Shown here: in pieces, positions 11,547-44,589 of the stretch
How positions within the stretch are numbered: position 1 is the stretch's first letter
How the letters are laid out: each line of letters begins with the position of its first letter
Assembly (NCBI GenBank): GCA_020445765.1
Contig: JAGRFY010000051.1
Span: forward strand, 22,850 to 82,616
Origin: Rhodocyclaceae bacterium
Lineage (GTDB): Bacteria; Pseudomonadota; Gammaproteobacteria; Burkholderiales; Rhodocyclaceae
Direction: 5' to 3'
Length of the DNA stretch: 59,767 bases
Position numbers and translations under genes: made by a program
The notes under the pieces: model-generated
Databases searched by the model: none
What the model was told of the DNA's origin: nothing
What the model saw: only the letters and a program-made list of their open reading frames with translations

Positions 11547-11563
11547 TGCTCCACAATGGAACA
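11547..11563. promoter_or_regulatory. Activator palindrome upstream of aor operon
   Basis: TGCTCCA-CAA-TGGAACA, centred about 104 bases upstream of the -12 element of the aor promoter. The same palindrome occurs upstream of the other sigma54 promoters here. A related half-site (TGCTCCA) starts at 11566. Probable site for an AcoR-type activator. Confidence 0.7.
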
Positions 11564-11645
11564 CCTGCTCCAATGCGCAACGCGCCATCGGACAGGGTGT
11601 CGCCGATTTCGTCGATGCGAGTGGCGGTTCCCGAGCAAACGAACG

Positions 11646-11661
11646 CGGCACGGCTCTTGCG
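11646..11661 (+). promoter_or_regulatory. Sigma54 promoter of the aor operon
   Basis: CGGCACGGCTCTTGCG: GG at 11647-11648, exactly ten bases, GC at 11659-11660, matching TGGCACG-N4-TTGCW except for the first and last base. It lies 60 bases before the ferredoxin gene. The 11408-11720 spacer holds this promoter, the activator palindrome and presumably the divergent moeA promoter, which I cannot identify. Confidence 0.85.
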
Positions 11662-11720
11662 CCTGTTTTCCCCGTTGGACGAGACATCGCACCAAACCCG
11701 AATAACCGGAGGACCAGCCC

Positions 11721-12191
11721 ATGTTGAAATCGCTGCACCTCGACCCGCAGAAATGTACCGGCTGCCTGCAATGCGAAATGGCCTGCTCGTACGAGAAGAC
11801 CGGAGTCGTCAATCCCGCCAAGTCGCGCATCAAGATCTTCAACTTCGAGGCCGAAGGCCGCAAGGTACCCTACACCTGTACCCAGTGTGCGGAAGCCTGG
11901 TGCATGGCTGCCTGCCCGGTCGAGGCCATCAAACTCGACAAGAGCACCGGCGCGAAAGTGGTGCTGGAAGACACCTGCGTCGGATGCAAGGTGTGCACGA
12001 TCGCCTGTCCGTTCGGCACCGTGAATTACATGGCCGACGTCGGCAAGGTCCAGAAATGCGACCTGTGCGGCGGCGACCCGGCCTGCGCCAAGGCCTGTCC
12101 GACCGGCGCGATCACCTACATCGACTCCGACTGGACCGGACTCGACAAGATGCGCGCATGGGCCGAGAAGGCCAATTCGGCGGCCCTGTAA
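11721..12191 (+). CDS. aorA: Aldehyde oxidoreductase polyferredoxin subunit (AorA-like)
   Basis: A 156-residue ferredoxin with sixteen cysteines in four CxxC groups (C12-C22, C53-C65, C86-C96, C113-C126), enough for four [4Fe-4S] clusters. It passes electrons from the tungsten subunit encoded next to the FAD subunit. In Aromatoleum aromaticum the homologous AorA and AorB stack into filaments capped by AorC, so this protein may form the same kind of electron wire. GGAGG is 8 bases upstream of the ATG. Cotranscribed with the catalytic gene 12 bases downstream. No signal peptide: cytoplasmic. Confidence 0.92.
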   Translation: MLKSLHLDPQKCTGCLQCEMACSYEKTGVVNPAKSRIKIFNFEAEGRKVPYTCTQCAEAWCMAACPVEAIKLDKSTGAKVVLEDTCVGCKVCTIACPFGTVNYMADVGKVQKCDLCGGDPACAKACPTGAITYIDSDWTGLDKMRAWAEKANSAAL

Positions 12192-12203
12192 GGAGAAGAG
12201 ACC

Positions 12204-14051
12204 ATGGCATGGAACAGGAAAGTCCTGCGGGTGAACCTCACCAACGGCACCTGCAACGCGGAACCGCTCAACATGGAGTGGGCCAACGACTATCTCGGCT
12301 CGCGCGGCCTCGGCACCAAGTACCTGTTTGAAGAGACCGACGCGAAGGTCGATCCGCTGTCGCCGGACAACAAGATGATCATGGCCACCGGTCCCCTGAC
12401 CGGCACGATGGCGTCCACCGGCGGCCGCTACACGGTGATCACCAAGGGCCCGCTGACCGGCGCGATCGCCTGCTCGAACTCCGGCGGCTACTTCGGGGCC
12501 GAGCTGAAGTTCGCCGGCTGGGACATGATCATCTTCGAGGGCAAGTCGTCCAAGCCGGTCTATCTCTACCTCGAGAACGACAAGGCCGAGCTGCGCGACG
12601 CCGGCCATCTGTGGGGCAAGACCTGCTGGGAAACCGAGGAGTTGATCAAGGAAACCCACCAGGATCCGCAGCTCCGCGTCTGCTCGATCGGTCGTTCGGG
12701 CGAGAATCAAGTGCTGTTCGCCTGCATCGTGAACGATCTGCACCGCGCCGCGGGCCGCTCCGGCGTCGGCGCCGTGATGGGCTCGAAGAACCTCAAGGCG
12801 GTTGCGATCCGCGGCACCAAGGGGGTTTCCGGCGTCAAGGATTTCGCGGCATTCATGAAGGCCAGCGACGCCGCCAAGAAGGTGCTCAAGGACAACGCCG
12901 TCACCGGCCAGGGCCTGCCCACCTACGGCACCCAGGTGCTGATGAACGTGATCAACGAGGTCGGTGCGCTGCCGACCCGCAACCACCGCGACGTCCAGTT
13001 CGAGGACGCTTCGAAGATCTCGGCGGAAGCGATGCACGAAGTACGCGAAAGCGACGGCAAGAAGCACCTGGTGACCAACGCCGCCTGCTTCGGCTGCACG
13101 ATCGCCTGCGGTCGCATCTCGAAGATCGACCAGAACCACTTCACCGTGGTCAACAGCCCGAAGTACTGGGGCGCTTCCGGCGGTCTGGAATATGAAGCAG
13201 CCTGGGCCCTCGGTGCCGCCAACGGCGTCGGCGACCTCGAGGCACTGCAATACGCCAACATGCTGTGCAACGAGGACGGCTACGATCCGATCACCTTCGG
13301 CGCCACCGTCGGCGCGGTGATGGAACTCTACGAGATGGGCGTGCTGACCAAGGAGCAGATCGGCATCGAGGCGCCGTTCGGCTCGGCCAAGGCACTGGCC
13401 TTCCTGGCCGAAAAGGTCTCCAGTGGCGAGGGCTTCGGCAAGGAAGTCGGCCTCGGCTCCAAGCGCCTGTGCGAGAAGTACGGCCACCCGGAACTGTCGA
13501 TGAGCGTCAAGGGCCAGGAATTCCCGGCCTACGACGGACGAGGCATCCAGGGCATCGGACTGAACTACGCCACGTCCAACCGGGGCGCCTGCCACGTCCG
13601 CGGATACACGGTCGCCTCCGAAGTGCTCGGCATCCCGGTCAAGACCGAGCCGACCGCCACTGAAGGCAAGCCCGAACTGGTCAAGGCCTTCCAGGACGCC
13701 ACGACGATCTTCGATTCCGCCGGCATCTGCCTGTTCACATCGTTCGCCTGGACCCTGGCCGATGTGCAGCCGCAACTCGAAGCCGCCTGCGAAGGCGACT
13801 GGTCGATGGAGAAGCTGAACCTGGTCGGCGAACGGATCTGGAACCTCGAGCGCCAGTACAACCTGGCCGCCGGCTTCACGCGCAAGGACGACGACCTGCC
13901 GCCGCGCCTGAAGAAGGAAGCCGCCAAGACCGGGCCGGCCAAGGGCGTGGTCAGTCACGTCGAAGAGATGCTGCCGGAGTACTACAAGGTCCGCGGCTGG
14001 GACAGCGAAGGGGTTCCGACCGGCGAGACCAAGACCCGCCTGGGCATCTGA
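12204..14051 (+). CDS. aorB: Tungsten-containing aldehyde:ferredoxin oxidoreductase catalytic subunit
   Basis: A 615-residue AOR-family enzyme that oxidises aldehydes to acids (and can reduce acids at low potential) at a bis-pterin tungsten site. Seen: N-terminal pterin-binding region (SRGLGTKYLF, ATGPLTGT, STGGRYTVITKGPLTG), [4Fe-4S] ligands C295, C298 and C302 in AACFGCTIACG, and the fourth ligand C509 in DSAGIC with the pterin-contacting Asp504. Length is typical. AGGAG precedes the ATG. Location after the polyferredoxin and before the FAD subunit matches the AorABC architecture of Aromatoleum. Expected to remove the aldehyde formed by the alcohol dehydrogenase of the same sigma54 regulon. 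Confidence 0.96.
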   Translation: MAWNRKVLRVNLTNGTCNAEPLNMEWANDYLGSRGLGTKYLFEETDAKVDPLSPDNKMIMATGPLTGTMASTGGRYTVITKGPLTGAIACSNSGGYFGAELKFAGWDMIIFEGKSSKPVYLYLENDKAELRDAGHLWGKTCWETEELIKETHQDPQLRVCSIGRSGENQVLFACIVNDLHRAAGRSGVGAVMGSKNLKAVAIRGTKGVSGVKDFAAFMKASDAAKKVLKDNAVTGQGLPTYGTQVLMNVINEVGALPTRNHRDVQFEDASKISAEAMHEVRESDGKKHLVTNAACFGCTIACGRISKIDQNHFTVVNSPKYWGASGGLEYEAAWALGAANGVGDLEALQYANMLCNEDGYDPITFGATVGAVMELYEMGVLTKEQIGIEAPFGSAKALAFLAEKVSSGEGFGKEVGLGSKRLCEKYGHPELSMSVKGQEFPAYDGRGIQGIGLNYATSNRGACHVRGYTVASEVLGIPVKTEPTATEGKPELVKAFQDATTIFDSAGICLFTSFAWTLADVQPQLEAACEGDWSMEKLNLVGERIWNLERQYNLAAGFTRKDDDLPPRLKKEAAKTGPAKGVVSHVEEMLPEYYKVRGWDSEGVPTGETKTRLGI

Positions 14052-14078
14052 GCCAGCCGGGCAGACCCGTCGTGACAG

Positions 14079-14114
14079 CGCCGGGGTCGCGGGCAGCCGC
14101 GCCCCGGCGTTTTT
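14079..14114 (+). terminator. Intrinsic terminator inside the aor operon
   Basis: CGCCGGGG (14079-14086) pairs with CCCCGGCG (14102-14109), followed directly by five T. It lies between the catalytic and FAD genes and probably lets only part of the transcripts continue, giving more ferredoxin and catalytic subunits than FAD subunit. Confidence 0.75.
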
Positions 14115-14167
14115 CCGGATCACTCCGCCCTGGGCTCGCGGCGAGCCCATGACTCGAGGATGGAACA

Positions 14168-15508
14168 ATGAAACACCTGATTCTGGGCAATGGCCCGACC
14201 GGCGTGGTTGCGGCCGAGACCCTGCGCGGCGTTGCACCGAACGACGAGATCGTGATGGTCGGCAGCGAACCCGAGCCGCCGTATTCGCGCATGGCGATCC
14301 CCTATCTGCTCGAAGGCAACATCGACGAGCGTGGTACCTACCTGCGCAAGACCGATAGCCACTTCGGCGATCTTTCGATCCGCCAGAAGAGCGGTCGTGC
14401 GACCGCCCTGGATACGGCCAGCCAGCGCGTCACCTTCGACGACGGCAGCGTCGAGACCTACGACCGGCTGCTGATCGCCACCGGCTCCCACCCGGTGCGC
14501 CCGCCGATCCCGGGCGTCGATCTGCCGCAGGTACAGACCTGCTGGACGCTCGAGGATGCCAGGGGCATCGCCAAGCTGGCGGCGCCGGGCGCGCGCGTGC
14601 TGCAGCTCGGTGCCGGCTTCATCGGCTGCATCATCATGGAAGCGCTGGCCAAGCGCGGCGTCGAACTGACCGTGGTCGAAATGGGTGACCGCATGGTGCC
14701 GCGGATGATGACGCCGAAGGCCGGCGGCATGATCAAGCGCTGGGTCGAGGAGAAGGGCATCCGCGTCGTCACCGGCGCCGGCGTGCAGCGCATCGATCCG
14801 GCCGGGGCCAACAGCGCCGGCGGCATCGGCGGCGTGATCCGTTCGGTGGTGCAGAGCGTGACCGGCAACAAGCCGGGCGACGCCGGCGCACTGACGGTCA
14901 CGCTGTCCACCGGCGACAAGCTCGAATGCGATCTGGTGATCGTGGCGGCCGGCGTGGCACCGAATGTCGACTTCCTGAAGGACACGACGATCGAGGTCAA
15001 CAAGGGGGTCGTGGTCAATCTCGCGATGGAGACCGGTGTCGACGGCGTCTATGCCGCCGGAGACGTCACCGAGGCGCCCGATCTCTTGACCGGCGAGAAC
15101 ATCGTCTCGGCAATCCAGCCCAACGCCGCCGACCAGGGCCGCATCGCGGCGCTGGGCATGGCCGGGCGCAAGGTGAGCTTGCCCGGCGTACTGCCGATCA
15201 ACGTCCTCGACACGCTGGGCCTGATCTCGGTGTCGTTCGGCCAATGGTGGGGCGAGACGCCCGAGAACGACGGCAGCGGCGTCGAACTGGCCGACGAGGG
15301 CCTGTGGCGATACCTCAGCCTGCAGTTCCAGGGCGACGTGCTGATCGGTGCGACCGCGATCGGACGGACCGATCAGGTCGGCGTGCTGCGCGGCCTGATC
15401 CAGAACCGCACGCCACTGGGCAAATGGAAGGACATCCTGATGGAAAGTCCGACCCGCTTCGTGGACGCATACATCGCCACCAGTCAGCCGATTTCGATCG
15501 CAGCCTGA
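14168..15508 (+). CDS. aorC: FAD-dependent NAD(P)H oxidoreductase subunit (AorC-like)
   Basis: A 446-residue pyridine-nucleotide-disulfide-type flavoprotein without the redox-active cysteine pair. Seen: FAD motif GNGPTGVVAAE at the N-terminus, the ATG-type segment LLIATGSHPVRPP, the NAD(P) motif LGAGFIGCIIMEA (about residue 150) and DGVYAAGDVTEAPDLL. It would link the ferredoxin chain to NAD(P). GAGGA precedes the ATG. An intrinsic terminator separates it from the catalytic gene, which fits a minor cap subunit in an (AorAB)n-AorC assembly. Confidence 0.9.
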   Translation: MKHLILGNGPTGVVAAETLRGVAPNDEIVMVGSEPEPPYSRMAIPYLLEGNIDERGTYLRKTDSHFGDLSIRQKSGRATALDTASQRVTFDDGSVETYDRLLIATGSHPVRPPIPGVDLPQVQTCWTLEDARGIAKLAAPGARVLQLGAGFIGCIIMEALAKRGVELTVVEMGDRMVPRMMTPKAGGMIKRWVEEKGIRVVTGAGVQRIDPAGANSAGGIGGVIRSVVQSVTGNKPGDAGALTVTLSTGDKLECDLVIVAAGVAPNVDFLKDTTIEVNKGVVVNLAMETGVDGVYAAGDVTEAPDLLTGENIVSAIQPNAADQGRIAALGMAGRKVSLPGVLPINVLDTLGLISVSFGQWWGETPENDGSGVELADEGLWRYLSLQFQGDVLIGATAIGRTDQVGVLRGLIQNRTPLGKWKDILMESPTRFVDAYIATSQPISIAA

Positions 15509-15855: not shown

Positions 15856-15861
15856 CAAGCG

Positions 15862-18351: not shown

Positions 18352-20400
18352 TCACATGCGACCGAGCTTGCGATAAAGCGTGTTGCGGCTGATGCCGAGC
18401 CGTCGGGCCGCCGCCGAAACATTGCCCTGGCACTCCGCCAGCACGCGCTCGATCGCGCGCAATTCGATGACTTCCAGCGACTCGCCGGAGGCCGGTGCGG
18501 CCGGCGCCTCGCCGATCAGCGGCCGCCGCAGCGACGCCGGTTGCAGCGACGGCGGCGTATCGAAACGTTCCGACGAGGCATCGCTGTCGCATTCGATCGC
18601 AAACAGCTCCTCGGGCAGGTGTGCGGAAGTGATCTCGGTCTCGTCGGGATCGAGCAGCGCCAACGCCACCCGCAAGACGTTCTGCAGTTGACGGATGTTG
18701 CCGGGCCAGCCGTAGCGGGCAAAGAAATCCTGGACCTCTTCGGACACCGCCACCAGTTGCCCGGGCTCCGCCTCGATCTCGATGATGGTGTCGATCAGAC
18801 TGCGGATGTCGGAGCGCTCGCGAAGCGCTGGCAGCGTCACCGTCAGGCCATTGACACGATAGTAGAGATCCTGGCGGAAGACGCCCGTACGCACTGCCTC
18901 GGGCAGGTTTCGGTGGGTCGCGCAGACCAGCGAGATGTCGACCGGAACCGACTTGACGCCGCCCAAGGGCACCACGATGCGTTCCTGCAGCACACGCAGC
19001 AGCCGCGCCTGCAGCGACAGCGGCATGTCGCCGATCTCGTCGAGGAACAGGGTACCGCCACTGGCCTGCTGGATCTTGCCGGCATAGCCTTCCTTGCGGG
19101 CGCCGGTGAAGGCGCCACCGACGTAGCCGAACAATTCCGATTCGATCAGGTTCTCGGGAATGGCCGCGCAGTTCAATGCCACGAACGGCTTGTCGCGGCG
19201 CGGACCGCTGTGGTGGAAGCCTTTCGCGAACATTTCCTTGCCGACGCCCGACTCGCCGAGGATCAGCAGCGGGATGTCCTTGCCGACCACCTTGCTGGCG
19301 CGCTGGACCGCCGCCCTCAGGCGCGGATCTCCGGTATCCAGACAGGCCAGGGTCGGCGTCTCGGGGGTCTCGCAGGTGCGCGCCGTGCGCGGCTTGACGT
19401 CGGCGATCACCGGCGCGCTCGGCGCCGCGGCTGGCGTCACCGACGGACCGCTGCGGGCGATCGGCACGCGCATCCGCGCGAACACCCGCTCGCCGTGACG
19501 CAATGACAGCGAACTCAAGGTATGGGGATCACGTGCCGCGCGATCGACGAAGCTGCCGAAGTCGCCCTCGAACAACATGCCGAAATCGAGCTGGCCGATC
19601 ATCGCCCGGTTGATGCTGAGCGCCTCGACCGCCGGCCGGTTGGCAGCCAGCAGGGTGCCTTCGGGTGCAAATGCAAGCACCCCTTCCTGCAAGGTTCCGA
19701 CGTATTCCATGCGTGGATGGAAGAACACCAGATATTCCTGTGCAAACTCGGCTTCGAACAGACGCTTCTCCATGATTTGCGATGTCAGCCTGACCAGACC
19801 GAGGGTGTGTCGCTGATGGACACGGAAGTCGCCCGAAATGTCGAGCGCCCCGAGCAGTCGCCCACGGGCATCGAAGATCGGCGAAGCGCTGCAGGTGAGG
19901 AAGCTGTTGCAGTCGAAATAGTGCTCGCTGCCGACGATCTCCACCGGGCGCTGTTCGACCAGGGCAGTACCGACCGCGTTGGTTCCGCGCATGGTCTCGG
20001 ACCACGACGCACCGGGCCTCAGGGCCACACGGTTGGCACGATCGACGAACTCCGGGTCGCCGAGGCTCTCGAGCACCATGCCGGAGCTGTCCGACAGGAT
20101 CACGACGCTGCCGGTCGAGCGGATCTGTTCGTAGAGGTGGTTCAGGATCCCTCGCGAGTGCGACAGCAGGAAGGCATTGCGATCACGCGCCTCGCGCAGC
20201 GCGTTCTGCGCGGCGCAGCCGACGTCGCCGCCGCGCACGTCGTGGTCGAGGCCGAGCTGGCGGCAGCGCTGCCAGGATTTGACGATTCCCGAGGTTGCGA
20301 CGTCGACCGCGGTGCTCTTGTCCCGTCCCTCGAAGAACGCCCGCCGCGCATCGCGCACCTGGGCATCCCGTGCCTCCATCGGTAACACAAGTCCGCTCAT
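18352..20400 (-). CDS. AcoR-family sigma54-dependent activator (1)
   Basis: A 682-residue enhancer-binding protein. N-terminal segment with SWQRCRQLGL and a GAF domain (about 80-200; SETMRGTNAVGTALVEQRPVEI is the typical region, given here by its ends SETMRG and RPVEI), a PAS-like part, the AAA+ domain with Walker A GESGVGKE, the sigma54-contacting GAFTGA loop, Walker B DEIGDMP, and a Fis-type helix-turn-helix at the extreme C-terminus (NVSAAARRLGISRNTLYRKL). GAGGAG precedes the ATG. It is divergent from the PedF-like cytochrome gene, whose sigma54 promoter and palindromes lie between them, making it the prime candidate regulator of the whole alcohol/aldehyde regulon. Confidence 0.93.
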   Translation of the reverse strand: MSGLVLPMEARDAQVRDARRAFFEGRDKSTAVDVATSGIVKSWQRCRQLGLDHDVRGGDVGCAAQNALREARDRNAFLLSHSRGILNHLYEQIRSTGSVVILSDSSGMVLESLGDPEFVDRANRVALRPGASWSETMRGTNAVGTALVEQRPVEIVGSEHYFDCNSFLTCSASPIFDARGRLLGALDISGDFRVHQRHTLGLVRLTSQIMEKRLFEAEFAQEYLVFFHPRMEYVGTLQEGVLAFAPEGTLLAANRPAVEALSINRAMIGQLDFGMLFEGDFGSFVDRAARDPHTLSSLSLRHGERVFARMRVPIARSGPSVTPAAAPSAPVIADVKPRTARTCETPETPTLACLDTGDPRLRAAVQRASKVVGKDIPLLILGESGVGKEMFAKGFHHSGPRRDKPFVALNCAAIPENLIESELFGYVGGAFTGARKEGYAGKIQQASGGTLFLDEIGDMPLSLQARLLRVLQERIVVPLGGVKSVPVDISLVCATHRNLPEAVRTGVFRQDLYYRVNGLTVTLPALRERSDIRSLIDTIIEIEAEPGQLVAVSEEVQDFFARYGWPGNIRQLQNVLRVALALLDPDETEITSAHLPEELFAIECDSDASSERFDTPPSLQPASLRRPLIGEAPAAPASGESLEVIELRAIERVLAECQGNVSAAARRLGISRNTLYRKLGRM

Positions 20401-20479: not shown

Positions 20480-20496
20480 TGTTCCACATTGGAGCA
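20480..20496. promoter_or_regulatory. Activator palindrome upstream of cytochrome operon
   Basis: TGTTCCA-CAT-TGGAGCA, about 166 bases upstream of the -12 element. A further half-site TGCTCCA starts at 20515. It lies in the 20401-20717 spacer between the activator gene and the cytochrome gene. Confidence 0.75.
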
Positions 20497-20640
20497 ATCC
20501 TGCACCGCAGCGGCTGCTCCACTTATAGGCAAGGCCCATGCCACGTTGCGCACGTGAAAACCGCGTCGAATGGCGCCGAAGCCGCCTGGAACGCGGCATG
20601 GTGCGCGGCTCGGCACCATCGGCCGGCGATTGCGGCACCG

Positions 20641-20656
20641 TGGCATAGCCCTTGCA
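20641..20656 (+). promoter_or_regulatory. Sigma54 promoter of the pedF-like operon
   Basis: TGGCATAGCCCTTGCA: GG at 20642-20643, ten bases, GC at 20654-20655. Matches the -24/-12 consensus at nearly all conserved positions; 62 bases before the ATG. Confidence 0.9.
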
Positions 20657-20717: not shown

Positions 20718-21152
20718 ATGGCCACTACTCAAAAGCCCCGCCGCGCGCTGCGACGCGCCATTGCCATTGCTGCCTTCGGAATTGCCGGCAGCGCCTTCGC
20801 TCACGGCGACGTGACACCGCAGGCAGTGGACGTCACCAGTCTCAAGCCGCTCGGCGACGAATGGCTCGAGAGCAACCCCTATCGCGGTGATGCGGAAGCG
20901 ATCCGGATCGGCACCTCGGCCTTCAACCAGAACTGCGCGCGCTGCCATGGCATCGGCGCGGTATCCGGCGGCATCGCACCGGACCTGCGCTACCTGCCGG
21001 TCGAAGACGAAGGCGACGAGATCTTCATCATGCGCATCCGCAACGGAGCGACCCGCAACGGACGCGTGTACATGCCGCCGTTCGAGGGTATCCTCCAGCA
21101 GGAAGCGATGTGGGCCATCCGGGCCTATCTGGAGACGGTGCATGTGGAATAG
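20718..21152 (+). CDS. pedF: PedF-like cytochrome c550
   Basis: A 144-residue periplasmic mono-heme cytochrome: signal peptide with AIAAFGIAGSAFAHG cleavage region, heme motif CARCH (about residue 77), distal Met in YMPPFEG. The PedF family accepts electrons from PQQ alcohol dehydrogenases in pseudomonads. AAGGA lies 7 bases before the ATG; a sigma54 promoter drives it. It overlaps the next gene by 11 bases, so the cytochrome and the binding protein are coupled. Confidence 0.9.
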   Translation: MATTQKPRRALRRAIAIAAFGIAGSAFAHGDVTPQAVDVTSLKPLGDEWLESNPYRGDAEAIRIGTSAFNQNCARCHGIGAVSGGIAPDLRYLPVEDEGDEIFIMRIRNGATRNGRVYMPPFEGILQQEAMWAIRAYLETVHVE

Positions 21153-21990
21153 ACGCAGCGCTCTGCGCGGTCTTGCGACACTGGCGCTGGCGATAGCCAG
21201 CGCCAGTGTCGCGGCGCTCGCCGAGCCGGTGGAGACGATGACCCCCGGCCGGCTGCGGATAGCGGTATACGACGATTTCGCGCCCTATTCGGGCGACGGT
21301 TCGGGAATCGACGTGGCACTCGGCCGGGAACTCGCGAAACGACTGGGCCTCGAGCCCGAAGTGGTTGAGTTCGCGGCCGACGAGGACATGAACGACGACC
21401 TGCGCAACATGGTCTGGAAGGGGCACTACCTCGGCACCCGGCCGGCCGACGTGATGCTGCATGTGCCGGTCGACCAGCGGCTAGCCGACCGCAATGAGCA
21501 GGTGCGGATCTTCGGCCCCTACCATCTCGAGAGCCTCGCCGTGATTCGCGACCCGAAACGCGTGCCGCCGGTCGAGGGTTCCGCGGCGCGGGCACTGGAG
21601 GTATTTACTCGTGAGCGCATCGGCGTCGAGACCGCAACGCTGGCCGACGATTTCCTGCTGCAGGTGTTGAACGGCCGACTGCGCGACAACGTGGTGCACT
21701 TCCGGAGTGTCGCCGATGCAGTCAAGGCGATGGAGGCCGGCGACGTCGTCGCCGTCATGGCCACCCGCGCGGAAATCGAAGGGGCGGCCCGGGGCGCGGA
21801 TTCGCGCTTCGTGCTGACCACCGTCAAGATGCCGGAACTCAGGATTCAGGGCTGGCCCCTCGGCATGGCCGTCAAGGCGGAATCGACGGGCCTCGCCGAC
21901 GCTCTGGCCCAGGCCATGATCGAGATCCAGCGTGACGGCACCCTCGCACGCATCTTCAGCGACCATGGCGTGACCCTGCAGAAGCCGTGA
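21142..21990 (+). CDS. Quinoprotein-associated periplasmic binding protein (XoxJ/PedB-like)
   Basis: A 282-residue solute-binding-like protein of the group found beside PQQ dehydrogenases (TIGR03871/XoxJ-like), with signal peptide LATLALAIASASVAALA and the fold-3 opening LRIAVYDDFAPYSGDGSGIDVALGRELA split over PYSGDG. Proposed family roles are cofactor loading or activation of the apo-dehydrogenase. The ATG lies inside the cytochrome gene. A perfect 17-bp inverted repeat falls in the signal-peptide codons. Ends before a strong terminator. Confidence 0.88.
   Translation: MWNRRSALRGLATLALAIASASVAALAEPVETMTPGRLRIAVYDDFAPYSGDGSGIDVALGRELAKRLGLEPEVVEFAADEDMNDDLRNMVWKGHYLGTRPADVMLHVPVDQRLADRNEQVRIFGPYHLESLAVIRDPKRVPPVEGSAARALEVFTRERIGVETATLADDFLLQVLNGRLRDNVVHFRSVADAVKAMEAGDVVAVMATRAEIEGAARGADSRFVLTTVKMPELRIQGWPLGMAVKAESTGLADALAQAMIEIQRDGTLARIFSDHGVTLQKP
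21175..21212. repeat. Perfect 17-bp inverted repeat in signal-peptide codons
   Basis: GCGACACTGGCGCTGGC (21175-21191), loop GATA (21192-21195), then the exact complement (21196-21212). It encodes part of the binding-protein signal sequence and starts 34 bases after its ATG; in mRNA it would form a very stable hairpin. Confidence 0.9.
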
Positions 21991-22062: not shown

Positions 22063-22452
22063 GGCGATTTCCTGTTCTGGCCTTATATAAGACATCAGAC
22101 CAGACACAGAATTGTCCAGGATGTGGGCAAGCATGCGACTCACAATAGAGCAGCTGCTCCATTTATGAACAGTCATTCGATCTTGAATTGTTCCGCGGCT
22201 ACGCGTTTTGGCCCGAACTGGCGCCCATGACCGCCACGGGCCGGGGCGCGCATCGGCGAAATTTGGGGCGCGGTGATACGCGGCGGCGAACAGCGCCCCG
22301 TTCAGTCAAGCGATCGCCATCGCCCGAGCCACTTTGACGGCAGGCCTTCACGGGGAGGGCATCTGCGCAGCCGGCCAGACGCGCCGCATCGCACGCCGCT
22401 ACCGGTTCGCCGGCGGCCGGCGCCGGCAGACCACCCGGGGCCTCCGCAGCTG
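22063..22452. other. Intergenic stretch with one palindrome-like site
   Basis: Lies between two convergent operons. It contains TGCTCCA-TTT-ATGAACA at 22155-22171, which resembles the activator palindrome (12 of 14 arm positions), and an AT-rich TTATATAA patch around 22083. No correctly spaced -24/-12 promoter or credible gene is near, so the site may be chance or may serve an unseen small RNA. Confidence 0.4.
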
Positions 22453-23262
22453 CTAGCCACCGCGGCCCGTTCGTTTCAGCATGCCGCGCTGGGGGTCGTA
22501 ACCGAACACGGCGATTGCAAAGAAGGCCAGCAGACAGCCGACGACAACCAGAAACGAAGTCGCCTGGAATTGTCCGTACATCGCGAAGCGCACCAGTTCG
22601 ACCGCATGGCTGAAGGGGTTGAAGCGGGCCGCCTGGTGCAGCCACTCCGCGCCCGACTCCTGCAGTTTCCACAGGGGATAGAGCGCCGGCGAGATGAAGA
22701 ACATCGGGAAGATCACGAAGTTCATGGTGCCGGCAAAGTTCTCGAGTTGCTTGACGTGAACGGACAGCACCAGCCCGAGGGCTCCGAGCATCATGCCTGC
22801 GAGCACCAGGGCGGGCAGCACCAGCAGCATGCCCTCGAGCGGCAACTCGACGCCGATCAGCCAGGCGATCGCGAGAAAGCCGACAGCCTGCAGCACCGAC
22901 AGCACGGTGCCGGCGACGAGCTTCGACAGCAGCAGATACCAGCGCGGCACCGGTGCGGTCAGCAGCAGCCGCATCATTCCCATTTCGCGGTCGTAGACCA
23001 TCGCCAGCGACGACTGCATGCCATTGAACAGCAGGATCATGCCGAGCAGACCCGGTGCGATGTAGACCTGATACGGGATGTAGGTCTCGTAGGGCGGGAT
23101 GATCGAGACGCCGAAGACGTTCTGGAAGCCGGCGGCAAACACCACCAGCCACAACAGCGGGCGCACCAGGGCCGAAAAGAAGCGCCCGCCCTGGTGCACG
23201 AACTTCTCGACTTCGCGGCCGGCGACCGCGCCGAGGACCCGGAGGCCATGGGCCGGCGTCAT
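22453..23262 (-). CDS. ABC-2 type permease of the PQQ alcohol dehydrogenase system
   Basis: A 269-residue inner-membrane permease with about six hydrophobic spans (LLWLVVFAAGFQNVFG, LLGMILLFNGMQS, VLSVLQAVGFLAIAWLIG, LLVLPALVLAGMMLGALGLV, FVIFPMFFISPALYPLW, FLVVVGCLLAFFAIAVFG). Matches the PedC/TIGR03861 permease found with PQQ catabolism genes. Pairs with the ATPase three genes upstream. Last gene of a seven-gene operon. The substrate of this exporter-type transporter is not known. Confidence 0.88.
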   Translation of the reverse strand: MTPAHGLRVLGAVAGREVEKFVHQGGRFFSALVRPLLWLVVFAAGFQNVFGVSIIPPYETYIPYQVYIAPGLLGMILLFNGMQSSLAMVYDREMGMMRLLLTAPVPRWYLLLSKLVAGTVLSVLQAVGFLAIAWLIGVELPLEGMLLVLPALVLAGMMLGALGLVLSVHVKQLENFAGTMNFVIFPMFFISPALYPLWKLQESGAEWLHQAARFNPFSHAVELVRFAMYGQFQATSFLVVVGCLLAFFAIAVFGYDPQRGMLKRTGRGG

Positions 23263-23284
23263 CGGCGGCTCCGTGACGCGTCGA

Positions 23285-24460
23285 TCAGAACTTGCATTGG
23301 CTTTCCCGTTGGTCGAATCCGAGCGTATCGAGCGTATTGGTCTGGTGCATGAAGCCCTGGATCGGCGCCCGCTCGATCACCGCGTTGTGGGTCGCCAGCA
23401 GCATTGGCTGGCGCAGTTGGTGGTTCCAGCTGCGGAAGGAAAGACGATGGCCCTTGAAGCCGTCGATCGTGATCTCGGGCCCGAGCAGGTACTCGCGGAT
23501 CTTGCCGAAATCCGCGCCGCCGGTGCGCTGCATCGCCTCGATGACCGTCTTCGCGGCCATCCACGCGGCCCATCCCGCCTCACTCATCCGGTACTTGGCC
23601 TGCCGTTCGAATCGGGTATTGAGTTGCGGCGCGCCGTTGCGCTCCCAGGACCAGTGCCAGCCGACCGCGACCAGGCCTTCGGCACCGACCACCGGTCGCG
23701 GCCGCACGGTGCTGTAGGGCACGCCGCGGGCAAATTCGCCGTCACTGTCGGCGACGAAGACGACGTCGTAGTCGGCATTCGAGGTGAGCAATCCGACGTT
23801 GCCCTGATCGCGCTCGCGGGGATCGTTGGACAGGATGAAGTCGCGCTTCGCCTCGATCTTGATGCCGAAACGCTTGGCCGACCGCTCGAAGGCCTGGGCG
23901 ATCAGCGCATCCTCCGGGAGAGGCCCCTGCAACACCAGCACCGATCGCCATTTCCTGGAAACCAGGTACTGCGCCAGGGCGTCGGCCTGCATCGCGTGAC
24001 TGGGCGCGGTATGCAGCAGGTTCGCCTGGCACTGTTGCTGGCGCAGTGCGTCGTCGTGGGCCGAGACGTTGAACAGCAGCACATCACGCCCCTTGACCGC
24101 CGCGGCGACTTCCGCCACCACCGACCCGGGCGCGTCGATCAGAAAATAGCGCGTGCCCTCCCCGTACAGCCGCTCGATCGCGGCGACCAGTCCCTTGGCG
24201 TCGTCGGCGCGCACCTGCTTCTCGCCCAGTTCGACACCGACTGCCTTGGCGTTGAAGCGGGATTCGCGCAGCGCCACTGCGAGGCCGGGCTCGGGTTCGC
24301 CCTCGCCCTGCGCCAGGTTGCGCGCATAGATGCGATCCTCGTGGTAGCGGTCGTCGCGGGACAGGCCGAGATAGCCGAAATCGAGCGACGCCGCCGTCGA
24401 CGCGCTGGCGAGCCCTGCGATGGCGGCAGCCATCAGAATCGTGCGCAACTTGAATTTCAT
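23285..24460 (-). CDS. ABC-system periplasmic binding protein, PQQ dehydrogenase type
   Basis: About 391 residues with signal peptide LRTILMAAAIAGLASASTA; a leucine/branched-chain-binding-like fold of the TIGR03863 family (LDFGYLGLSRDDRY, YFLIDAPGSV, LLTSNADYDVVFVADSDGEF). ATG 24460 gives a classical signal peptide; ATG 24481, overlapping the upstream stop, is the alternative. Its partners are a type-2 exporter permease rather than an importer, so it may sense or deliver rather than bind for uptake. Confidence 0.85.
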   Translation of the reverse strand: MKFKLRTILMAAAIAGLASASTAASLDFGYLGLSRDDRYHEDRIYARNLAQGEGEPEPGLAVALRESRFNAKAVGVELGEKQVRADDAKGLVAAIERLYGEGTRYFLIDAPGSVVAEVAAAVKGRDVLLFNVSAHDDALRQQQCQANLLHTAPSHAMQADALAQYLVSRKWRSVLVLQGPLPEDALIAQAFERSAKRFGIKIEAKRDFILSNDPRERDQGNVGLLTSNADYDVVFVADSDGEFARGVPYSTVRPRPVVGAEGLVAVGWHWSWERNGAPQLNTRFERQAKYRMSEAGWAAWMAAKTVIEAMQRTGGADFGKIREYLLGPEITIDGFKGHRLSFRSWNHQLRQPMLLATHNAVIERAPIQGFMHQTNTLDTLGFDQRESQCKF

Positions 24461-24473
24461 GATGGCGGCGATC

Positions 24474-25448
24474 TCAGTCATCGACCACCACGCCATAGGG
24501 AACCCGTCCGACCGGAACGGATTTCAGCACCCGGCGCTTGCCGGTATCGACGATCGACAGGTCGTCCGACAGGCCATTGACCACGTAGAGCGTCTTCTCG
24601 TCGCGGGACAGCGTGGCGCCCCATGCCCTGCGGCCAACCAGGATGTAGTCCTCGATCTCGCGCTTGGCGACATCGACGACCGCGACGTGATTTGCCCGCC
24701 CGAGCGTGACATAGGCCGTCTTGCCGTCGCGGGTCATGACGATGCCCACCGGCGTGACGTCCTCGTCGCGAAAGCCCTTGGGCTTGAACGGGATCGTGCC
24801 CTTGATCCGGTCGGTCTTGCCGTCCAGGATCGTCACCTCGCCGGCCAGCTCGCTGGTGACCCAGACTTCGCCGCCGTCGGGGGTGATCGCAAAGCGCCGC
24901 GGCCGGTTGCCGACGGTGACGTTGTTGCGGATCTGGTTGGTCGCGGCGTCGATCACGTGGACCATGCTGGCGACCTCCGAAGTGGCGTAGACGGTCTTGC
25001 CGTCCGGGCTCACCTTGACCCCCTCGGGCTCTTCGCCGACCTCGATCTCGGCGACCTGCCGGCCGCTGGCGACGTCGATCACCGAGACCGCCGCGTCCTC
25101 CTCCATCGAGATGTAGAAGTGCTTGCCATCCGGCGCGACATCGAATGCCTCAGGGTCCTCGCCGACATCGATGCTCTTGTTCACTTCCAGGGCCGCGACG
25201 TCGATCAGATCGATCCGGCCCGAGTCGCTGGCGACCACGTAGAGAATCGCGTGATCGGGCGAGAACTGCATGTGGCGCGGTCGCTCGCCGGTGGCGATGA
25301 CCTTGACGACATCGAGGCTCTTGCCGTCGAGCACCGTGACCGCGTGGTCCTTCTCGCTGCTGACGAAGATCCGGCCACTGTCCTTCGCCGTGGCGACCCC
25401 GACAAACGACAGCAGCAGTGCTGCGGCACCGGCCTTGATCATGCGCAT
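24474..25448 (-). CDS. PQQ-catabolism-associated YVTN beta-propeller protein
   Basis: A 324-residue exported seven-bladed propeller (signal peptide AAALLLSFVGVATA) with repeated units such as RIFVSSEKDHAVTVLDG, KTVYATSEVASMVHVID and KTAYVTLGRANHVAVVD; TIGR03866 family, regularly coupled to PQQ-dependent alcohol systems. GGAGATACGA precedes the ATG. Not a PQQ enzyme itself: no cofactor motifs. Function unknown, periplasmic. Confidence 0.9.
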   Translation of the reverse strand: MRMIKAGAAALLLSFVGVATAKDSGRIFVSSEKDHAVTVLDGKSLDVVKVIATGERPRHMQFSPDHAILYVVASDSGRIDLIDVAALEVNKSIDVGEDPEAFDVAPDGKHFYISMEEDAAVSVIDVASGRQVAEIEVGEEPEGVKVSPDGKTVYATSEVASMVHVIDAATNQIRNNVTVGNRPRRFAITPDGGEVWVTSELAGEVTILDGKTDRIKGTIPFKPKGFRDEDVTPVGIVMTRDGKTAYVTLGRANHVAVVDVAKREIEDYILVGRRAWGATLSRDEKTLYVVNGLSDDLSIVDTGKRRVLKSVPVGRVPYGVVVDD

Positions 25449-25459
25449 TCGTATCTCCT

Positions 25460-26236
25460 CTATGGCTTCGGGTTCGGGTTGTCCGGGGTAGCGCGCCCAC
25501 CGCCCTCGGTCAGCTGCGCGAAAGCCCCGGCAAGGCTGTCGACGCCGACCGTGGCAATCAGTTCTGCGGGCGTGCCTTCGGCCCGCACCCGTCCCTGGTG
25601 CAGCAGGACGACGCGATCGGCGCGTTCGGCCTCGTCCACCAGGTGCGACGCCCACAGCACGCCGACACCACGCGTCACGCACAGGCCATGGACCTGCGCC
25701 AGCAGCGTCGCCCGCGAACCGGGATCGAGGCCGACGGTGGCCTCGTCCATCAGCAGCACGCGGGGCTCATGCACCATCGCACGCGCCAGTTCGACCTTGC
25801 GCCGATTGCCTCCGGAAAGGTCGCGCACGCGGTCGCCACGGCGGTCGACGAGCCCCTGCGCCGCCAGTTCCTCGCCGACGCGCCGACGGGCAACCGGGCC
25901 ACCAAGGCCATGCAGGCGGGCGTGGAACATCAGGTTGCGCTCGACCGAAAGATCGAGATCTAGGGTCGCCTGCTGGAAGACGATGCCGATCCTGGCGAGC
26001 GCCTTCACCGGGGAACGGCGGATATCCTGGCCGCAGATCGTGATGTGGCCGCCATCGGCGACGAACAGTCCCGACAGCAACTGGAACAAGGTGCTCTTGC
26101 CCGCGCCGTTGGGGCCCAGCAGGGCCACGAACTCGCCCTCCGAAATCGCCAGCGAAACGCCATCCAGCGCCTTGCGGGCGCCGTACGACTTGGCAACGTT
26201 GTCCACCGTCAGCAGGGCGGCATTCGATTCGGTCAT
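25460..26236 (-). CDS. ABC ATPase of the PQQ alcohol dehydrogenase system
   Basis: A 258-residue nucleotide-binding subunit (TIGR03864 type): Walker A GPNGAGKST, Q-loop VFQQ, signature LSGGNRR (canonical LSGGQ with Asn), Walker B LLMDEATVGLD, switch His in WASHLVDEA. The ATG overlaps the stop of the upstream gene (ATGA). Drives the ABC-2 permease encoded at the operon end. Confidence 0.92.
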   Translation of the reverse strand: MTESNAALLTVDNVAKSYGARKALDGVSLAISEGEFVALLGPNGAGKSTLFQLLSGLFVADGGHITICGQDIRRSPVKALARIGIVFQQATLDLDLSVERNLMFHARLHGLGGPVARRRVGEELAAQGLVDRRGDRVRDLSGGNRRKVELARAMVHEPRVLLMDEATVGLDPGSRATLLAQVHGLCVTRGVGVLWASHLVDEAERADRVVLLHQGRVRAEGTPAELIATVGVDSLAGAFAQLTEGGGRATPDNPNPKP

Positions 26237-26994: not shown

Positions 26995-26995
26995 C

Positions 26996-28797: not shown

Positions 28798-28875
28798 TCG
28801 AGTCTCCTTCCATTGCCGGCTTTGCCGAGCGGCTTGCCGGTCTGATGCGGCGCGAGCCGCAATGTTCCCCTCGGG

Positions 28876-28891
28876 TGCAAGCGGTGTGCCA
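28876..28891 (-). promoter_or_regulatory. Sigma54 promoter of the ABC/propeller operon
   Basis: On the minus strand TGGCACACCGCTTGCA: GG complementary to 28889-28890, ten bases, GC complementary to 28877-28878. Almost perfect consensus, 79 bases before the start codon and just downstream of the terminator that ends the preceding minus-strand unit. Confidence 0.92.
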
Positions 28892-28907
28892 GCGCTCAAC
28901 GCAGGTC

Positions 28908-30659: not shown

Positions 30660-30676
30660 TGTGCAATTCTGGAGCA
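30660..30676. promoter_or_regulatory. Possible activator site between GGDEF and activator 2 genes
   Basis: TGTGCAA-TTC-TGGAGCA: right arm perfect, left arm two mismatches. The 30524-30827 spacer holds no -24/-12 element with correct spacing (30638-30650 has GG-N9-GC), so this could be an autoregulatory site or chance. Confidence 0.4.
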
Positions 30677-30827: not shown

Positions 30828-32678
<1,851 letters not shown>

Positions 32679-42025: not shown

Positions 42026-42416
42026 CTGAAACCTCCTGACGGATTGTCGTTGAAAACCGCGCTTCCGCATCCGGGGTCGGTACGCCGGCGGATTCCGCCC
42101 GCAGGCCCCGCATACACAAAATCAAAACTCACCCGGACCACACACCGACCGCGCCATCGCACGCCATTGCGGCGCTGGCCAGGGCCTGTGCATCCGTTGC
42201 AAAAGTGTGCCATCGAGGACAGTTTGCTCTGATGCTGCAACAGTCATGCCAATTGCAACGGGTGAATGTCACGCTGCGATTCGACGCCCGCGGGCCCGGC
42301 CCACGCGACGCAGATCCGCTACTACTGCCCGCCACCGCACCAAAGACAGCGGCACGACAGCGCATGCTGCCGTGCCGCCGCTGCCCGGGACGCTCGACCC
42401 GGGCCATGCTCATCGA
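42026..42416. other. Spacer between dehydrogenase and cytochrome genes
   Basis: Contains tandem hairpins: GCCCGGG-N8-CCCGGGC (42383-42404) and an imperfect 13-bp stem (42348-42382) ending in GTCTTT on the minus strand, a plausible terminator for the dehydrogenase. At 42198-42212 the minus strand reads TGGCACACTTTTGCA, a sigma54-like element with nine instead of ten bases between GG and GC. No gene seen. Confidence 0.5.
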
Positions 42417-44204
42417 TCAGGACTTGTGCAGCTTGAAGACCCAGATCGAGCCACCCTGCTCGAGGAAGTTCACGCGCTTCGCAACGTCACCTCCCCACAA
42501 CGGAACGGCGCCACCCCAACCGGCCGAAACGGCAATGTATTGCTCACCGTCCTGCTCCCAGGTGATCGGCGGCGCGACGATGCCGGTGCCGACCTGGAAG
42601 CTCCACAGCTCCTTGCCGGTCTTGGCGTCGAGTGCCTTGAAGTAGCCTTCGGGCGTGCCGTAGAAGGTCAGGCCACCAGCGGTCGTCAGCACGCCACCCC
42701 ACAGCGGCGCATAGTTCTTGTTTTCCCAGACGATCTTGCCGGCCACCGGATCAACTGCGCGAAGCACGCCGATGTAGTCTTCGTGCAGCGCCTTGATGGT
42801 GAAGCCGGCGCCGAGATAGGCGGCACCCTTCTTGTAGGAGACCGGCTCGTTCCAGATTTCCATGCCCCACTCGTTGGCCGGCACGTAGAACAGGCCGGTC
42901 TTCGGGTTGTAGGCGATCTGCATCTGGTTCTTGCCACCGAGGAAGGACGGCACCGCGAACACCACTTCGCCCTTCTTGCCGTCGGACGAGGACGCCGGAT
43001 TGCCCGGACGATTCGAGTCGACATACACCGGCCGTCCGGTCTCGAGATCGATCCTCTCGGCCCAGCTGATGTCGTTGACGAACGGGAAGGCGTTCAGCAG
43101 CTTGCCGTTGGTGCGGTCATTGACGAAGAAGAAGCCATTGCGGTCGGCCTTGCCGCCGGCCTTGATCACCTTGCCCGACTTCGGATCCTTGTAGTCGAAC
43201 GAGACGAACTCGTTGACGCCGTCGAAGTCCCAGCCGTCGTGCGGGGTGTTCTGGTAGTGCCAGACGATCTTGCCGGTGTCGGGATTGATCGCGACGGTCG
43301 ACGACGAGAACAGGTTGTCGCCCGGACGCAGGTGACTGTTCCACGGCGCCGGGTTGCCGGTACCGGCGAAGATCAGGTTGGTATCGGGATCGTAGGTGGC
43401 GCCGTTCCAGGTCGCCGAACCGCCGGTCTGCCAGAGATCGCCAGGCCAGGTCGCGTTCTTGGTACCGGAAACACCGTTCTCGACCTTGTTGCCCTTGTCG
43501 TCGAACGTGTAGCCCATGTGGCCTTCGACCGTCGGCCGGATCCACTTCAGCTTGCCGGTCTTGGCGTCGCGCGCCTCGATGCGACCGATCACGCCGAATT
43601 CGCCACCCGACACGCCGGTGATGACCATGCCATTGACGATGATCGGCGCGGCGGACATCGAGTAGCCGGCGGCGTAGTCGTCCACCTTCTCGCGCCACAC
43701 GCGCTTGCCGGTCTCGACGTCGAAGGCCAGCAACTGGGCATCGAGCGTACCGAAGATCACCAGATTGTCGTACAGGGCCGCACCGCGGTTGACGACGTCG
43801 CAGCAGGGCATGATGCCGTCGGGCAGGCGGTGCTCGTACTTCCACAGCTTCTTGCCGGTCTTGGCGTCGAAGGCGAACAGCCGGCTGTAGGAGGCGGTCA
43901 CGAACAGGCGGCCGTCATGCACCAGAGGCTGGCCCTCCTGGCCGCGCTGCTTCTCGCCGCCGTAGGACATCGTCCACGCCGGCACCAGATCGCCGACGTT
44001 GCCGGAGTTGACCTTGTCGAGCGGACTGTAGCGCTGACCCTGGGTGCCGATGCCGAAGGAGACCACGTCGCCGGTGGTCGTGGCGTCGTTCACGATGTCC
44101 GCATCGGTCACGCCGGCGCTGGCCGAGCCCCATGCCAGAACCGAGGCCGCGATGACGCTCAACGTCAGGCTGCGGGCCGGACGAGTCTTGCTCCATTCTT
44201 TCAT
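42417..44204 (-). CDS. PQQ-dependent alcohol dehydrogenase, predicted lanthanide type (PedH/ExaA-like)
   Basis: A 595-residue periplasmic quinoprotein (signal peptide [17 protein letters not shown]) with an eight-bladed propeller. Seen: vicinal cysteines C134-C135 in GIMPCCDVV, metal ligands Glu202 (GGEFG) and Asn284 (GTGNPAPWN), catalytic Asp326 in WDFDGVNE with Asp328 two residues later. That second Asp is the lanthanide mark of XoxF and PedH; calcium enzymes have Ala or Ser there. Only ATG 44204 exists (the codon before it is TTG); GGAGG precedes it. Sigma54 promoter and activator palindrome upstream. The type I ethanol-dehydrogenase layout suggests C2 and longer alcohols, with no fused heme domain, so it needs a separate cytochrome. 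Confidence 0.93.
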
Positions 44205-44281
44205 CAAAATACCTCCTCACTTTTTTTCGGTGCGTCCCCGACCGCCCGGGTCCGGATCTGAGCGGGGTGCCAATCCTGCTG

Positions 44282-44298
44282 CGCAAGGGACATGCCAC
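44282..44298 (-). promoter_or_regulatory. Sigma54 promoter of the alcohol dehydrogenase gene
   Basis: Minus strand TGGCATGTCCCTTGCG: GG complementary to 44295-44296, ten bases, GC complementary to 44283-44284; about 78 bases before the start codon. Confidence 0.9.
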
Positions 44299-44485
44299 TT
44301 GGCGACCCGCGGATTTTTGGATCCGGTTCTCGTGAAAATCGCCAGGCGAACACACCCGAAATCGGGCCGAAAGGCGCGTCGGCAATAGGTTGGAGGCCCA
44401 TACGCTTTCGTTTGTGCGCAGGCGTCGTCGGCGCGCCGCAAGCAATGCCGGCACACTGCGGCCGGGTGCTCCGAAAGTTGCCAAG

Positions 44486-44502
44486 TGTTCCGTATTGAAA
44501 CA
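44486..44502. promoter_or_regulatory. Shared activator palindrome between dehydrogenase and tonB promoters
   Basis: Plus strand TGTTCCG-TAT-TGAAACA. Its centre is about 210 bases from the minus-strand -12 and about 93 bases from the plus-strand -12, so one bound activator could serve both divergent promoters. A weaker half-site TGCTCCG starts at 44467. Confidence 0.7.
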
Positions 44503-44573
44503 AGGCAGGCCCGGCGCGGGACGCAACGCCGCCGCACCCGGAAGATGGGTCGGTCGCGGTCGAGCGCTTTCAC

Positions 44574-44589
44574 TGGCACTGCGCTTGCA
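44574..44589 (+). promoter_or_regulatory. Sigma54 promoter of the tonB operon
   Basis: TGGCACTGCGCTTGCA: GG at 44575-44576, ten bases, GC at 44587-44588; 42 bases before the proposed TTG start. Matches the consensus at every strongly conserved base. Confidence 0.92.

What the first reader, a model, noticed from the sequence alone, without database searches (positions are those of the whole stretch)
11547..44589. A five-operon sigma54 regulon defined by -24/-12 promoters and a shared 17-bp palindrome
Seen: five promoters with exact GG-N10-GC spacing at 11646 (aor), 20641 (cytochrome/binding protein), 28876 (ABC operon, minus), 44282 (alcohol dehydrogenase, minus) and 44574 (tonB operon). Upstream of them lie TGCTCCA-CAA-TGGAACA (11547), TGTTCCA-CAT-TGGAGCA (20480), TGTTTCA-GCA-CGGAACG (29186) and TGTTCCG-TAT-TGAAACA (44486). 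Known: AcoR-type activators bind such dyads and contact sigma54 through GAFTGA. Inference: the two activators at 18352 and 30828 bind these sites and coordinate alcohol oxidation, aldehyde oxidation, transport and sensing. I did not find the spacing in other intergenic regions of the window except near-misses with nine bases.
Basis: partly seen in the sequence, partly recalled or inferred. Interest (0 to 1): 0.85.

Follow-up and report, generated by a model that had tools for sequence, protein, structure and literature searches.

The report
Sigma54 alcohol-oxidation regulon with 3' operator
A set of bacterial genes for burning alcohols and aldehydes shares one DNA switch sequence next to a special type of promoter, and relatives keep an extra copy of that switch at the far end of one of the gene groups, where no promoter was found and its job is unknown.

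Summary
Five GG-N10-GC sites and four 17-bp dyads are at the stated positions. In the 4.84-Mb genome the exact dyad TGYTCCRNNNYGGARCA occurs twice, both in this window. All five promoters and dyads recur in one same-genus genome and four in another. The pedF promoter-dyad pair recurs in 36 of 36 assessable loci, and the exaA/divergent pair in six loci of two other genera. Best reading: a sigma54 alcohol/aldehyde-oxidation regulon of Rhodocyclaceae driven mainly by A1 (18352-20400); A1 orthologs track the exact dyad (41 of 55 genomes against 21 of 144). Binding is inferred; A2's part is unproven.

Unexpected: the copy of the dyad that most often keeps the exact consensus is not at a promoter. 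It lies at the 3' end of the pedF operon (34 of 36 loci, 27 exact), with no sigma54 promoter above background, and in a subset inside a long inverted repeat. Its role is open: distal enhancer, terminator-like hairpin, or both. The regulon is a new member of a known kind; the 3' operator is a new variant.

The parts
11547..11582 (.). tandem dyads (TGCTCCACAATGGAACA at 11547, TGCTCCAATGCGCAACG at 11566, 19 bp apart) upstream of aor
   Evidence: same layout with weaker copies (2 mismatches each) at L095 7576/7595
11646..11661 (+). sigma54 -24/-12 promoter-like site of aorABC (2 mismatches)
   Evidence: CGGCACGGGATTTGCG at L095 7675 (one relative)
11721..15508 (+). aorABC: 4Fe-4S protein AorA, AFOR large subunit AorB, pyridine-nucleotide oxidoreductase AorC
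   Evidence: Pfam/NCBIfam
18352..20400 (-). activator A1: GAF, sigma54 AAA+ with GAFTGA, Fis-type HTH (SRNTLYR)
   Evidence: orthologs
20480..20496 (.). dyad TGTTCCACATTGGAGCA between A1 and pedF
   Evidence: pedF 5' dyad with 3 or fewer mismatches in 36 of 36 loci, 2 or fewer in 31
20528..20543 (-). extra GG-N10-GC site pointing at A1 (TGGCATGGGCCTTGCC)
   Evidence: also at L095 15495 and L098 6804
20641..20656 (+). sigma54 promoter of pedF, exact consensus
20718..21990 (+). pedF cytochrome c-550 (TIGR04494, above cut-off) and a family-3 solute-binding protein, PedG-like by family and position (inference)
22155..22171 (.). window copy of the 3' operon-end dyad (TGCTCCATTTATGAACA, 2 mismatches)
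   Evidence: exact in 27 of 36 loci
22453..28899 (-). ABC operon: NMT1/SsuA-like protein, permease, ATPase, then PQQ_ABC_ATP, propeller, PQQ_ABC_bind, PedC permease (TIGR03864/03866/03863/03861, all above cut-off)
28876..28891 (-). sigma54 promoter of the ABC operon, exact consensus
   Evidence: exact sites at L028, L096, L098, L101
29186..29202 (.). weak dyad TGTTTCAGCACGGAACG, 310 bp (start to start) from the ABC promoter
   Evidence: counterpart L028 1309
30660..30676 (.). weak dyad TGTGCAATTCTGGAGCA between the GGDEF gene and A2; identical at L096 6509
30828..32678 (+). activator A2 (46% to A1): GAF, sigma54 AAA+ with GAFTGA, Fis-type HTH (TRTTLYR); the ORF opens at 30726 but homology to most hits starts near 30828 or later
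42236..42251 (-). extra sigma54 promoter-like site TGGCATGACTGTTGCA between exaA and the cytochrome c gene
   Evidence: L097 6203, L099 10684, L100 3978
42417..44207 (-). exaA-type PQQ alcohol dehydrogenase (TIGR03075, above cut-off)
44282..44297 (-). sigma54 promoter of exaA
44486..44502 (.). dyad TGTTCCGTATTGAAACA shared by two divergent promoters
44574..44589 (+). sigma54 promoter of the tonB operon
44631..49890 (+). TonB, TonB-dependent receptor, sensor kinase, LuxR-type response regulator

Best explanation
This is a sigma54-dependent regulon for oxidation of alcohols and the aldehydes they yield. A1 (a GAF, AAA+, Fis-HTH activator) senses a substrate or product, probably a short-chain alcohol or aldehyde (inferred). 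It binds TGYTCC-N5-GGARCA dyads, often in tandem 19 bp apart, about 60-310 bp upstream of -24/-12 promoters, loops to sigma54-RNA polymerase and opens the complex (sigma54 mechanism from general knowledge). Targets: pedF with its binding-protein gene, exaA, the ssu/ped ABC operon, the divergent TonB/receptor/kinase/regulator operon, and aorABC (in many relatives an aldehyde dehydrogenase gene carries such a site). A2, a paralog whose relatives often sit beside that aldehyde dehydrogenase gene, probably adds a second input at a subset of sites. Shown here: sequence sites, conservation, gene content, A1-dyad co-occurrence. Inferred: binding, inducer, expression.
For: Exact dyad only in the window within the genome. 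pedF promoter-dyad pair in 36 of 36 distinct assessable loci: promoter 0-1 mismatch, dyad 3 or fewer, 31 of 36 with 2 or fewer. All five promoters with dyads in the same-genus genome G104; four of five in G170, whose contig lacks the aor start. exaA dyad between two divergent sigma54 promoters in six loci of two other genera (L075-L078, L080, L082, picked because they held exact dyads) and in L073 of a third. Dyad plus promoter at the aldehyde dehydrogenase gene in relatives. 28 of 32 hand-listed promoter-type dyads have a GG-N10-GC site with 2 or fewer mismatches within 380 bp, background 9.6%. Exact dyad in 41 of 55 genomes with an A1 ortholog of 650 bits or more against 21 of 144 others, Fisher p 1.7e-15; reversed pattern 8 of 55 against 12 of 144. 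Family assignments.
Against: No binding or RNA data. 14 of 55 A1 genomes have no exact dyad. Co-occurrence is not corrected for phylogeny. The aor promoter has 2 mismatches and was compared in one relative only, where both dyads have 2 mismatches. 42236 has no dyad near it. Five of 36 pedF 5' dyads have 3 mismatches, which shuffled 380-bp pieces reach in about 14%. Four of 32 promoter-type dyads lack a good promoter. Eight of the 20 regions held an exact dyad with no regulon promoter or target gene beside it (L081, L083, L084, L090-L094), so exact copies by chance do occur. The own genome holds a third activator, 54-55% identical to A1, at G000:C90, with the same SRNTLYR helix, so A1 may not be the only binder.
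Confidence: 0.85

Rival explanations
1. A2 (or A1 and A2 together, or the 54-55% paralog A3) is the main binder of the dyads, and A1 has another job.
For: A2 and A3 have related HTHs; an A2-like gene (41-61%) lies beside the aldehyde dehydrogenase gene in 11 loci and 2.
Against: All 22 genomes with close A2 orthologs are among the 55 A1 genomes; of the 33 A1 genomes without one, 22 still hold the exact dyad (hand count). More distant A2-like genes exist in some of these, so this is not decisive. That the pedF dyad adjoins A1 in every locus is partly by construction, since loci were found through A1.
Confidence: 0.12
2. The 3' operon-end dyad is a transcription terminator hairpin (often between convergent genes) rather than an activator site.
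For: Outside the 17-bp core the flanks pair without a break for 2.7 positions on average, against 0.95 in permuted flank pairs (0 of 2000 reached it); 5' sites do not (0.19 against 0.33). 13 of 34 stems fold below -18 kcal/mol. 8-mers with 5 or more T after the stem: 4 of 34 sense, 5 of 34 antisense, against 2.7% at random genomic positions. Positions 3/15 are Watson-Crick pairs in 22 of 31.
Against: Counting all 14 flanking positions the excess is small (5.35 paired against 4.88 permuted, 121 of 2000 reached it), and relatedness is not corrected. The core is the same sequence as the promoter dyads, not merely complementary; positions 3/15 are C/A in 6 and T/G in 3 of 31. Many elements are tandem dyads 19 bp apart with short arms. 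Most lack a U-tract.
Confidence: 0.35
3. The palindrome is a chance or generic repeat and the five promoters are unrelated.
For: Degenerate copies are common (144 places at up to 2 mismatches, 95 for the control), and some exact copies elsewhere in the family look like chance.
Against: Conservation at the same promoters within and beyond the genus and genome-wide rarity of good copies.
Confidence: 0.03

Closest known systems
BmoR/Pbmo of Thauera butanivorans (alcohol-responsive sigma54 activator)
   Same: sigma54 activator answering to alcohols, with an upstream site 193 bp from a -24/-12 promoter and an inverted repeat in that region (PMC8899819 passages; PMC6366067 passages)
   Different: controls an alkane monooxygenase promoter; PMC8899819 reports that removing the putative repeat left the response like wild type (passage); no BmoR sequence was compared here; regulon size and a 3' operator were not described in what I saw
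Predicted sigma54 regulons AorR (aor-moaD) and AdhR (adhA) of Clostridiales
   Same: sigma54 activators with Fis-type HTH, TGT-N10-12-ACA sites, aor and alcohol dehydrogenase targets (PMC6615313 passages)
   Different: other phylum, alcohol synthesis rather than PQQ-linked oxidation; AorR and AdhR listed with one target operon each in the table rows seen; their scan covered only -400 to +50 from start codons, so 3' sites could not be seen
Pseudomonas ped/exa cluster
   Same: pedF, PQQ-ADH and PedG genes (PMC12997753 passages); Ped ABC families by NCBIfam names
   Different: there under AgmR and hybrid-kinase regulators (passages); the one place with sigma54 in that paper concerns CbrB
AorABC of Aromatoleum aromaticum
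   Same: three-subunit aldehyde oxidoreductase operon in a betaproteobacterium (PMC6365974 passages)
   Different: no promoter or regulator described there (the words regulator, promoter and sigma54 do not occur in its main text)

Membership tests
sigma54 enhancer-binding activators | sigma54 interaction AAA+ domain with GAFTGA loop | tested here: met
   PF00158 at 1.2e-63 (A1) and 1.1e-59 (A2); GAFTGA read in both
sigma54 enhancer-binding activators | Fis-type HTH at the C-terminus | tested here: met
   PF02954 in both
AcoR-like group (grouping recalled, not from a call) | N-terminal GAF domain | tested here: met
   PF01590 in both
AcoR or BmoR orthologs | orthology by sequence or a named equivalog above cut-off | tested here: inconclusive
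   no NCBIfam model among the 25 best shown per protein reached its cut-off; AcoR and BmoR sequences were not compared
sigma54 promoters | GG-N10-GC near TGGCAY-N5-TTGCW, conserved in relatives | tested here: met
sigma54 promoters | RpoN-dependent transcript start | not testable with these tools
   needs RNA
TGT-N10-12-ACA class of activator sites (PMC6615313) | inverted TGT/ACA with 10-12 bp between | tested here: met
   TGYTCC-N5-GGARCA reads TGY-N11-RCA. The third base is often C, a departure from the strict TGT/ACA form
intrinsic terminators (3' element) | G+C-rich hairpin followed by a U-tract | tested here: inconclusive
   13 of 34 stems below -18 kcal/mol; 5 or more T after the stem in 4 of 34 (sense)

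The most novel reading that the evidence does not exclude
The most consensus-like operator of a sigma54 activator is fixed at the 3' end of a target operon, 1.2-3.0 kb downstream of its promoter, and follows the operon's end rather than a set distance. The activator bound there works as a distal downstream enhancer or closes the operon into a loop between its 3' and 5' ends, possibly joined with termination.
Probability: 0.35. Interest if true: 0.8.

Novelty: new variant of a known kind. Interest (0 to 1): 0.55.

Why it matters
It gives a testable regulator, operator and target list for PQQ-linked alcohol oxidation in Rhodocyclaceae, where I found no described sigma54 activator for these genes (search listings; open-licence papers only). 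It also shows a conserved activator-type operator at an operon's 3' end, a place that a scan limited to upstream regions, such as the one in PMC6615313 (passage), cannot see. That makes natural downstream action of a sigma54 activator, or an operator-terminator hybrid, directly testable.

Tried and rejected
Tried: (1) A hidden sigma54 promoter beside the 3' element. Of 34 elements, 1 has a GG-N10-GC site with 2 or fewer mismatches facing away from the operon and 2 facing back, within 380 bp; background pieces 9.6%. A matrix from the pedF promoters scores at most 9.3 near the 3' elements within 350 bp, against 18.6-27.2 for its training set. (2) The 3' element serving a neighbour gene: the neighbour varies (pedC operon, aldehyde dehydrogenase region, others). 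(3) 3' and 5' dyad strengths compensating for each other: no trend by eye on the mismatch counts. (4) Pure hairpin reading: partly supported, kept as rival. (5) PHROGs, PADLOC, Rfam and structure prediction: not run. (6) Literature on sigma54 activator sites downstream or at operon ends: the listings showed nothing on point by title or abstract start; of these papers I saw passages of PMC6710252 only, which describes looping and tolerance of upstream site position.

Selection and drops: of 23 loci, L044 was left out (37% partial hit) and L031, L032, L033, L038 end before pedF; 18 were assessed. Of 20 regions, L055 and L071 are paralog loci without pedF and L070 repeats L029; 17 were kept, chosen partly knowing where dyads were. 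With the window that makes 36. On the 18 found by protein alone the 3' dyad has 2 or fewer mismatches in 18 and is exact in 14. An earlier count said 27 and 35 of 37; after removing the repeat it is 27 and 34 of 36. In L072 the operon may continue past the gene I took as last, so its end is uncertain. Some loci and G-genomes are the same genomes (contig lengths of L022 and G170:C189, L028 and G104:C175, L029 and G140:C65, L023 and its G194:C47 match, agree), so they are not independent. The place list was cut: 75 of 100 forward sites were listed and used, where '3 prime' means 1.2-3.6 kb upstream of the A1 start, gene context read only in the fetched loci.
Full report
What was checked. By genome-wide search good copies of the dyad are rare and concentrated here: 2 exact copies of TGYTCCRNNNYGGARCA in 4.84 Mb, both in the window, and the three best places for TGTTYCANNNTGRAACA, all in the window. 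At up to 2 mismatches the motif is little above its reversed control (144 against 95 places). The four 1-mismatch copies outside the window lie in open frames and have no GG-N10-GC site with 0-1 mismatch within about 380 bp. Exact TGGCAYNNNNNTTGCW sites occur at 27 places in the genome, four of them in the window; at up to 1 mismatch the count is 249 against 140 for the control. It recurs in three relatives between exaA and the next genes, a cytochrome c gene or a kinase/regulator pair. A further GG-N10-GC site, 20528(-), points at A1 and recurs in two relatives.

Genes. A1 (18352-20400, minus) and A2 (30828-32678, plus) are 46% identical paralogs with GAF, sigma54 AAA+ and Fis-HTH domains and GAFTGA loops. 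Proposed targets are pedF (TIGR04494) with a family-3 binding protein; an exaA-type PQQ alcohol dehydrogenase (TIGR03075); an ABC operon holding PedC, PQQ_ABC_bind, PQQ_ABC_repeats and PQQ_ABC_ATP behind an SsuABC-like set; aorABC; and TonB, TonB-dependent receptor, histidine kinase and LuxR-type regulator.

Conservation. The genome-contig search with A1 gave 23 loci in Rhodocyclaceae and kin, 18 of them assessable; 17 more distinct assessable loci came from family genomes. In all 36 assessable loci, window included, A1 is divergent from pedF, with a -24/-12 site of 0-1 mismatch and a dyad starting 83-177 bp upstream of it. Of the 5' dyads 8 of 36 are exact, 31 have 2 or fewer mismatches and 5 have 3; shuffled 380-bp pieces reach 3 or fewer in about 14%, so those five are weak. 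In the genus, G104 has all five promoters with dyads (aor dyads with 2 mismatches each), G170 has the four that lie on its contig, and G140 has the exaA/tonB pair. In six loci of two other genera, chosen because they held exact dyads, exaA and a divergent gene set that includes the kinase and regulator share one exact dyad between two sigma54 promoters; L073, of a third genus, has the same at exaA. Aldehyde dehydrogenase carries a dyad and promoter in many relatives, where this window has aor. A second dyad at 19 bp, with a 2-bp linker, is common at both promoter and 3' sites. Against: 8 of the 20 regions held an exact dyad without regulon genes or promoters beside it.

A1 against the dyad. 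In 199 family genomes, 41 of 55 with an A1 ortholog of 650 bits or more hold an exact dyad, against 21 of 144 others; the reversed pattern is in 8 of 55 and 12 of 144. This is not corrected for relatedness. Close A2 orthologs (577 bits or more) are in 22 genomes, all of which also have A1. A1 helices read SRNTLYR (SRNTIYR in L074) and A2 helices TRTTLYR in the loci read.

The 3' element. In 34 of 36 loci a dyad with 2 or fewer mismatches (27 exact) begins between 29 bp before and about 200 bp after the stop codon of the last pedF-operon gene, whether that operon ends after the binding protein or continues to cytochrome b561. L072 and L073 lack it. Shuffled 380-bp pieces reach 2 or fewer mismatches in 1.7%; real pieces of the same loci, true sites included, in 5.7%. 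Promoter and 3' element are 1183-3021 bp apart. The window's own copy, 22155, is a weak one. Among 60 listed exact sites in A1 genomes, 26 (in 25 genomes) lie 1.2-3.6 kb upstream of the A1 start, the place of this element, against 5 at the pedF 5' place. No sigma54 promoter is near it above background. Uninterrupted outer pairing is 2.68 positions on average against 0.95 when flanks are permuted (0 of 2000), while 5' sites show none (0.19 against 0.33); counted over all 14 flanking positions the excess is small (5.35 against 4.88, 121 of 2000). This argues for a hairpin in a subset. 13 of 34 stems fold below -18 kcal/mol, and 5 or more T follow the stem in 4 of 34. Position 3/15 letters in sites of 0-1 mismatch are C/G 18, C/A 6, T/A 4, T/G 3, so the half-sites lean to pairing but are not strictly coupled. 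The best reading is an A1 operator that in some genomes is also a hairpin; whether it is an enhancer, a loop anchor or a terminator is undecided.

Known and new. sigma54 regulons for alcohol and aldehyde genes are known in kind: BmoR (PMC8899819, PMC6366067, passages) and AorR/AdhR predictions in Clostridiales (PMC6615313, passages). Pseudomonas ped genes are described under other regulators (PMC12997753, passages). I found no paper on this regulon in the searches listed, which cover only open-licence papers and of which I saw listings. From memory, not from a call: sigma54 control of exaA in Azospirillum has been reported, and enhancer action at a distance and from downstream positions is known for NtrC and FleQ-type activators.

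Verdict. The regulon is real by sequence and conservation; mechanism and inducer are inferred. It is a new member of a known kind, and the 3' operator makes it a new variant.

Noticed in passing
window 22155-22171; L025 6843, L034 6979, L028 8213, L069 5365/5384 and others: Activator-type dyad fixed at the 3' end of the pedF operon, with no promoter near it; the place where exact copies of the motif are most often found in the family.
   Followed up: yes
window 42236-42251 (-): Exact sigma54 consensus between exaA and a cytochrome c gene, recurring in three relatives, with no dyad close by.
   Followed up: partly
window 20528-20543 (-): GG-N10-GC site facing A1, with the dyad 20480 on its downstream side: possible autoregulation of A1.
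   Followed up: partly
window 30660-30676: Weak dyad between the GGDEF gene and A2, identical in L096.
   Followed up: no
L055 (G000:C90:3506-5509): Third activator, 54-55% identical to A1, without good dyads around it (best copies have 2 mismatches).
   Followed up: partly
L078 12088-12104: Exact dyad between a second exaA-like gene and a kinase gene, with no promoter found by the pedF matrix.
   Followed up: no
window 32699-37660: Two RoxA-like di-heme cytochrome/peroxidase-type proteins and a 648-aa protein without Pfam or NCBIfam match, beside A2 here and in same-genus loci L096/L099.
   Followed up: no
window 15520-16944: 474-aa ORF with no Pfam or NCBIfam match, between aor and A1; partial matches only in relatives.
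   Followed up: no
window 52105-56080: Two zinc-ribbon proteins followed by an ADP-ribosylglycohydrolase-family gene.
   Followed up: no
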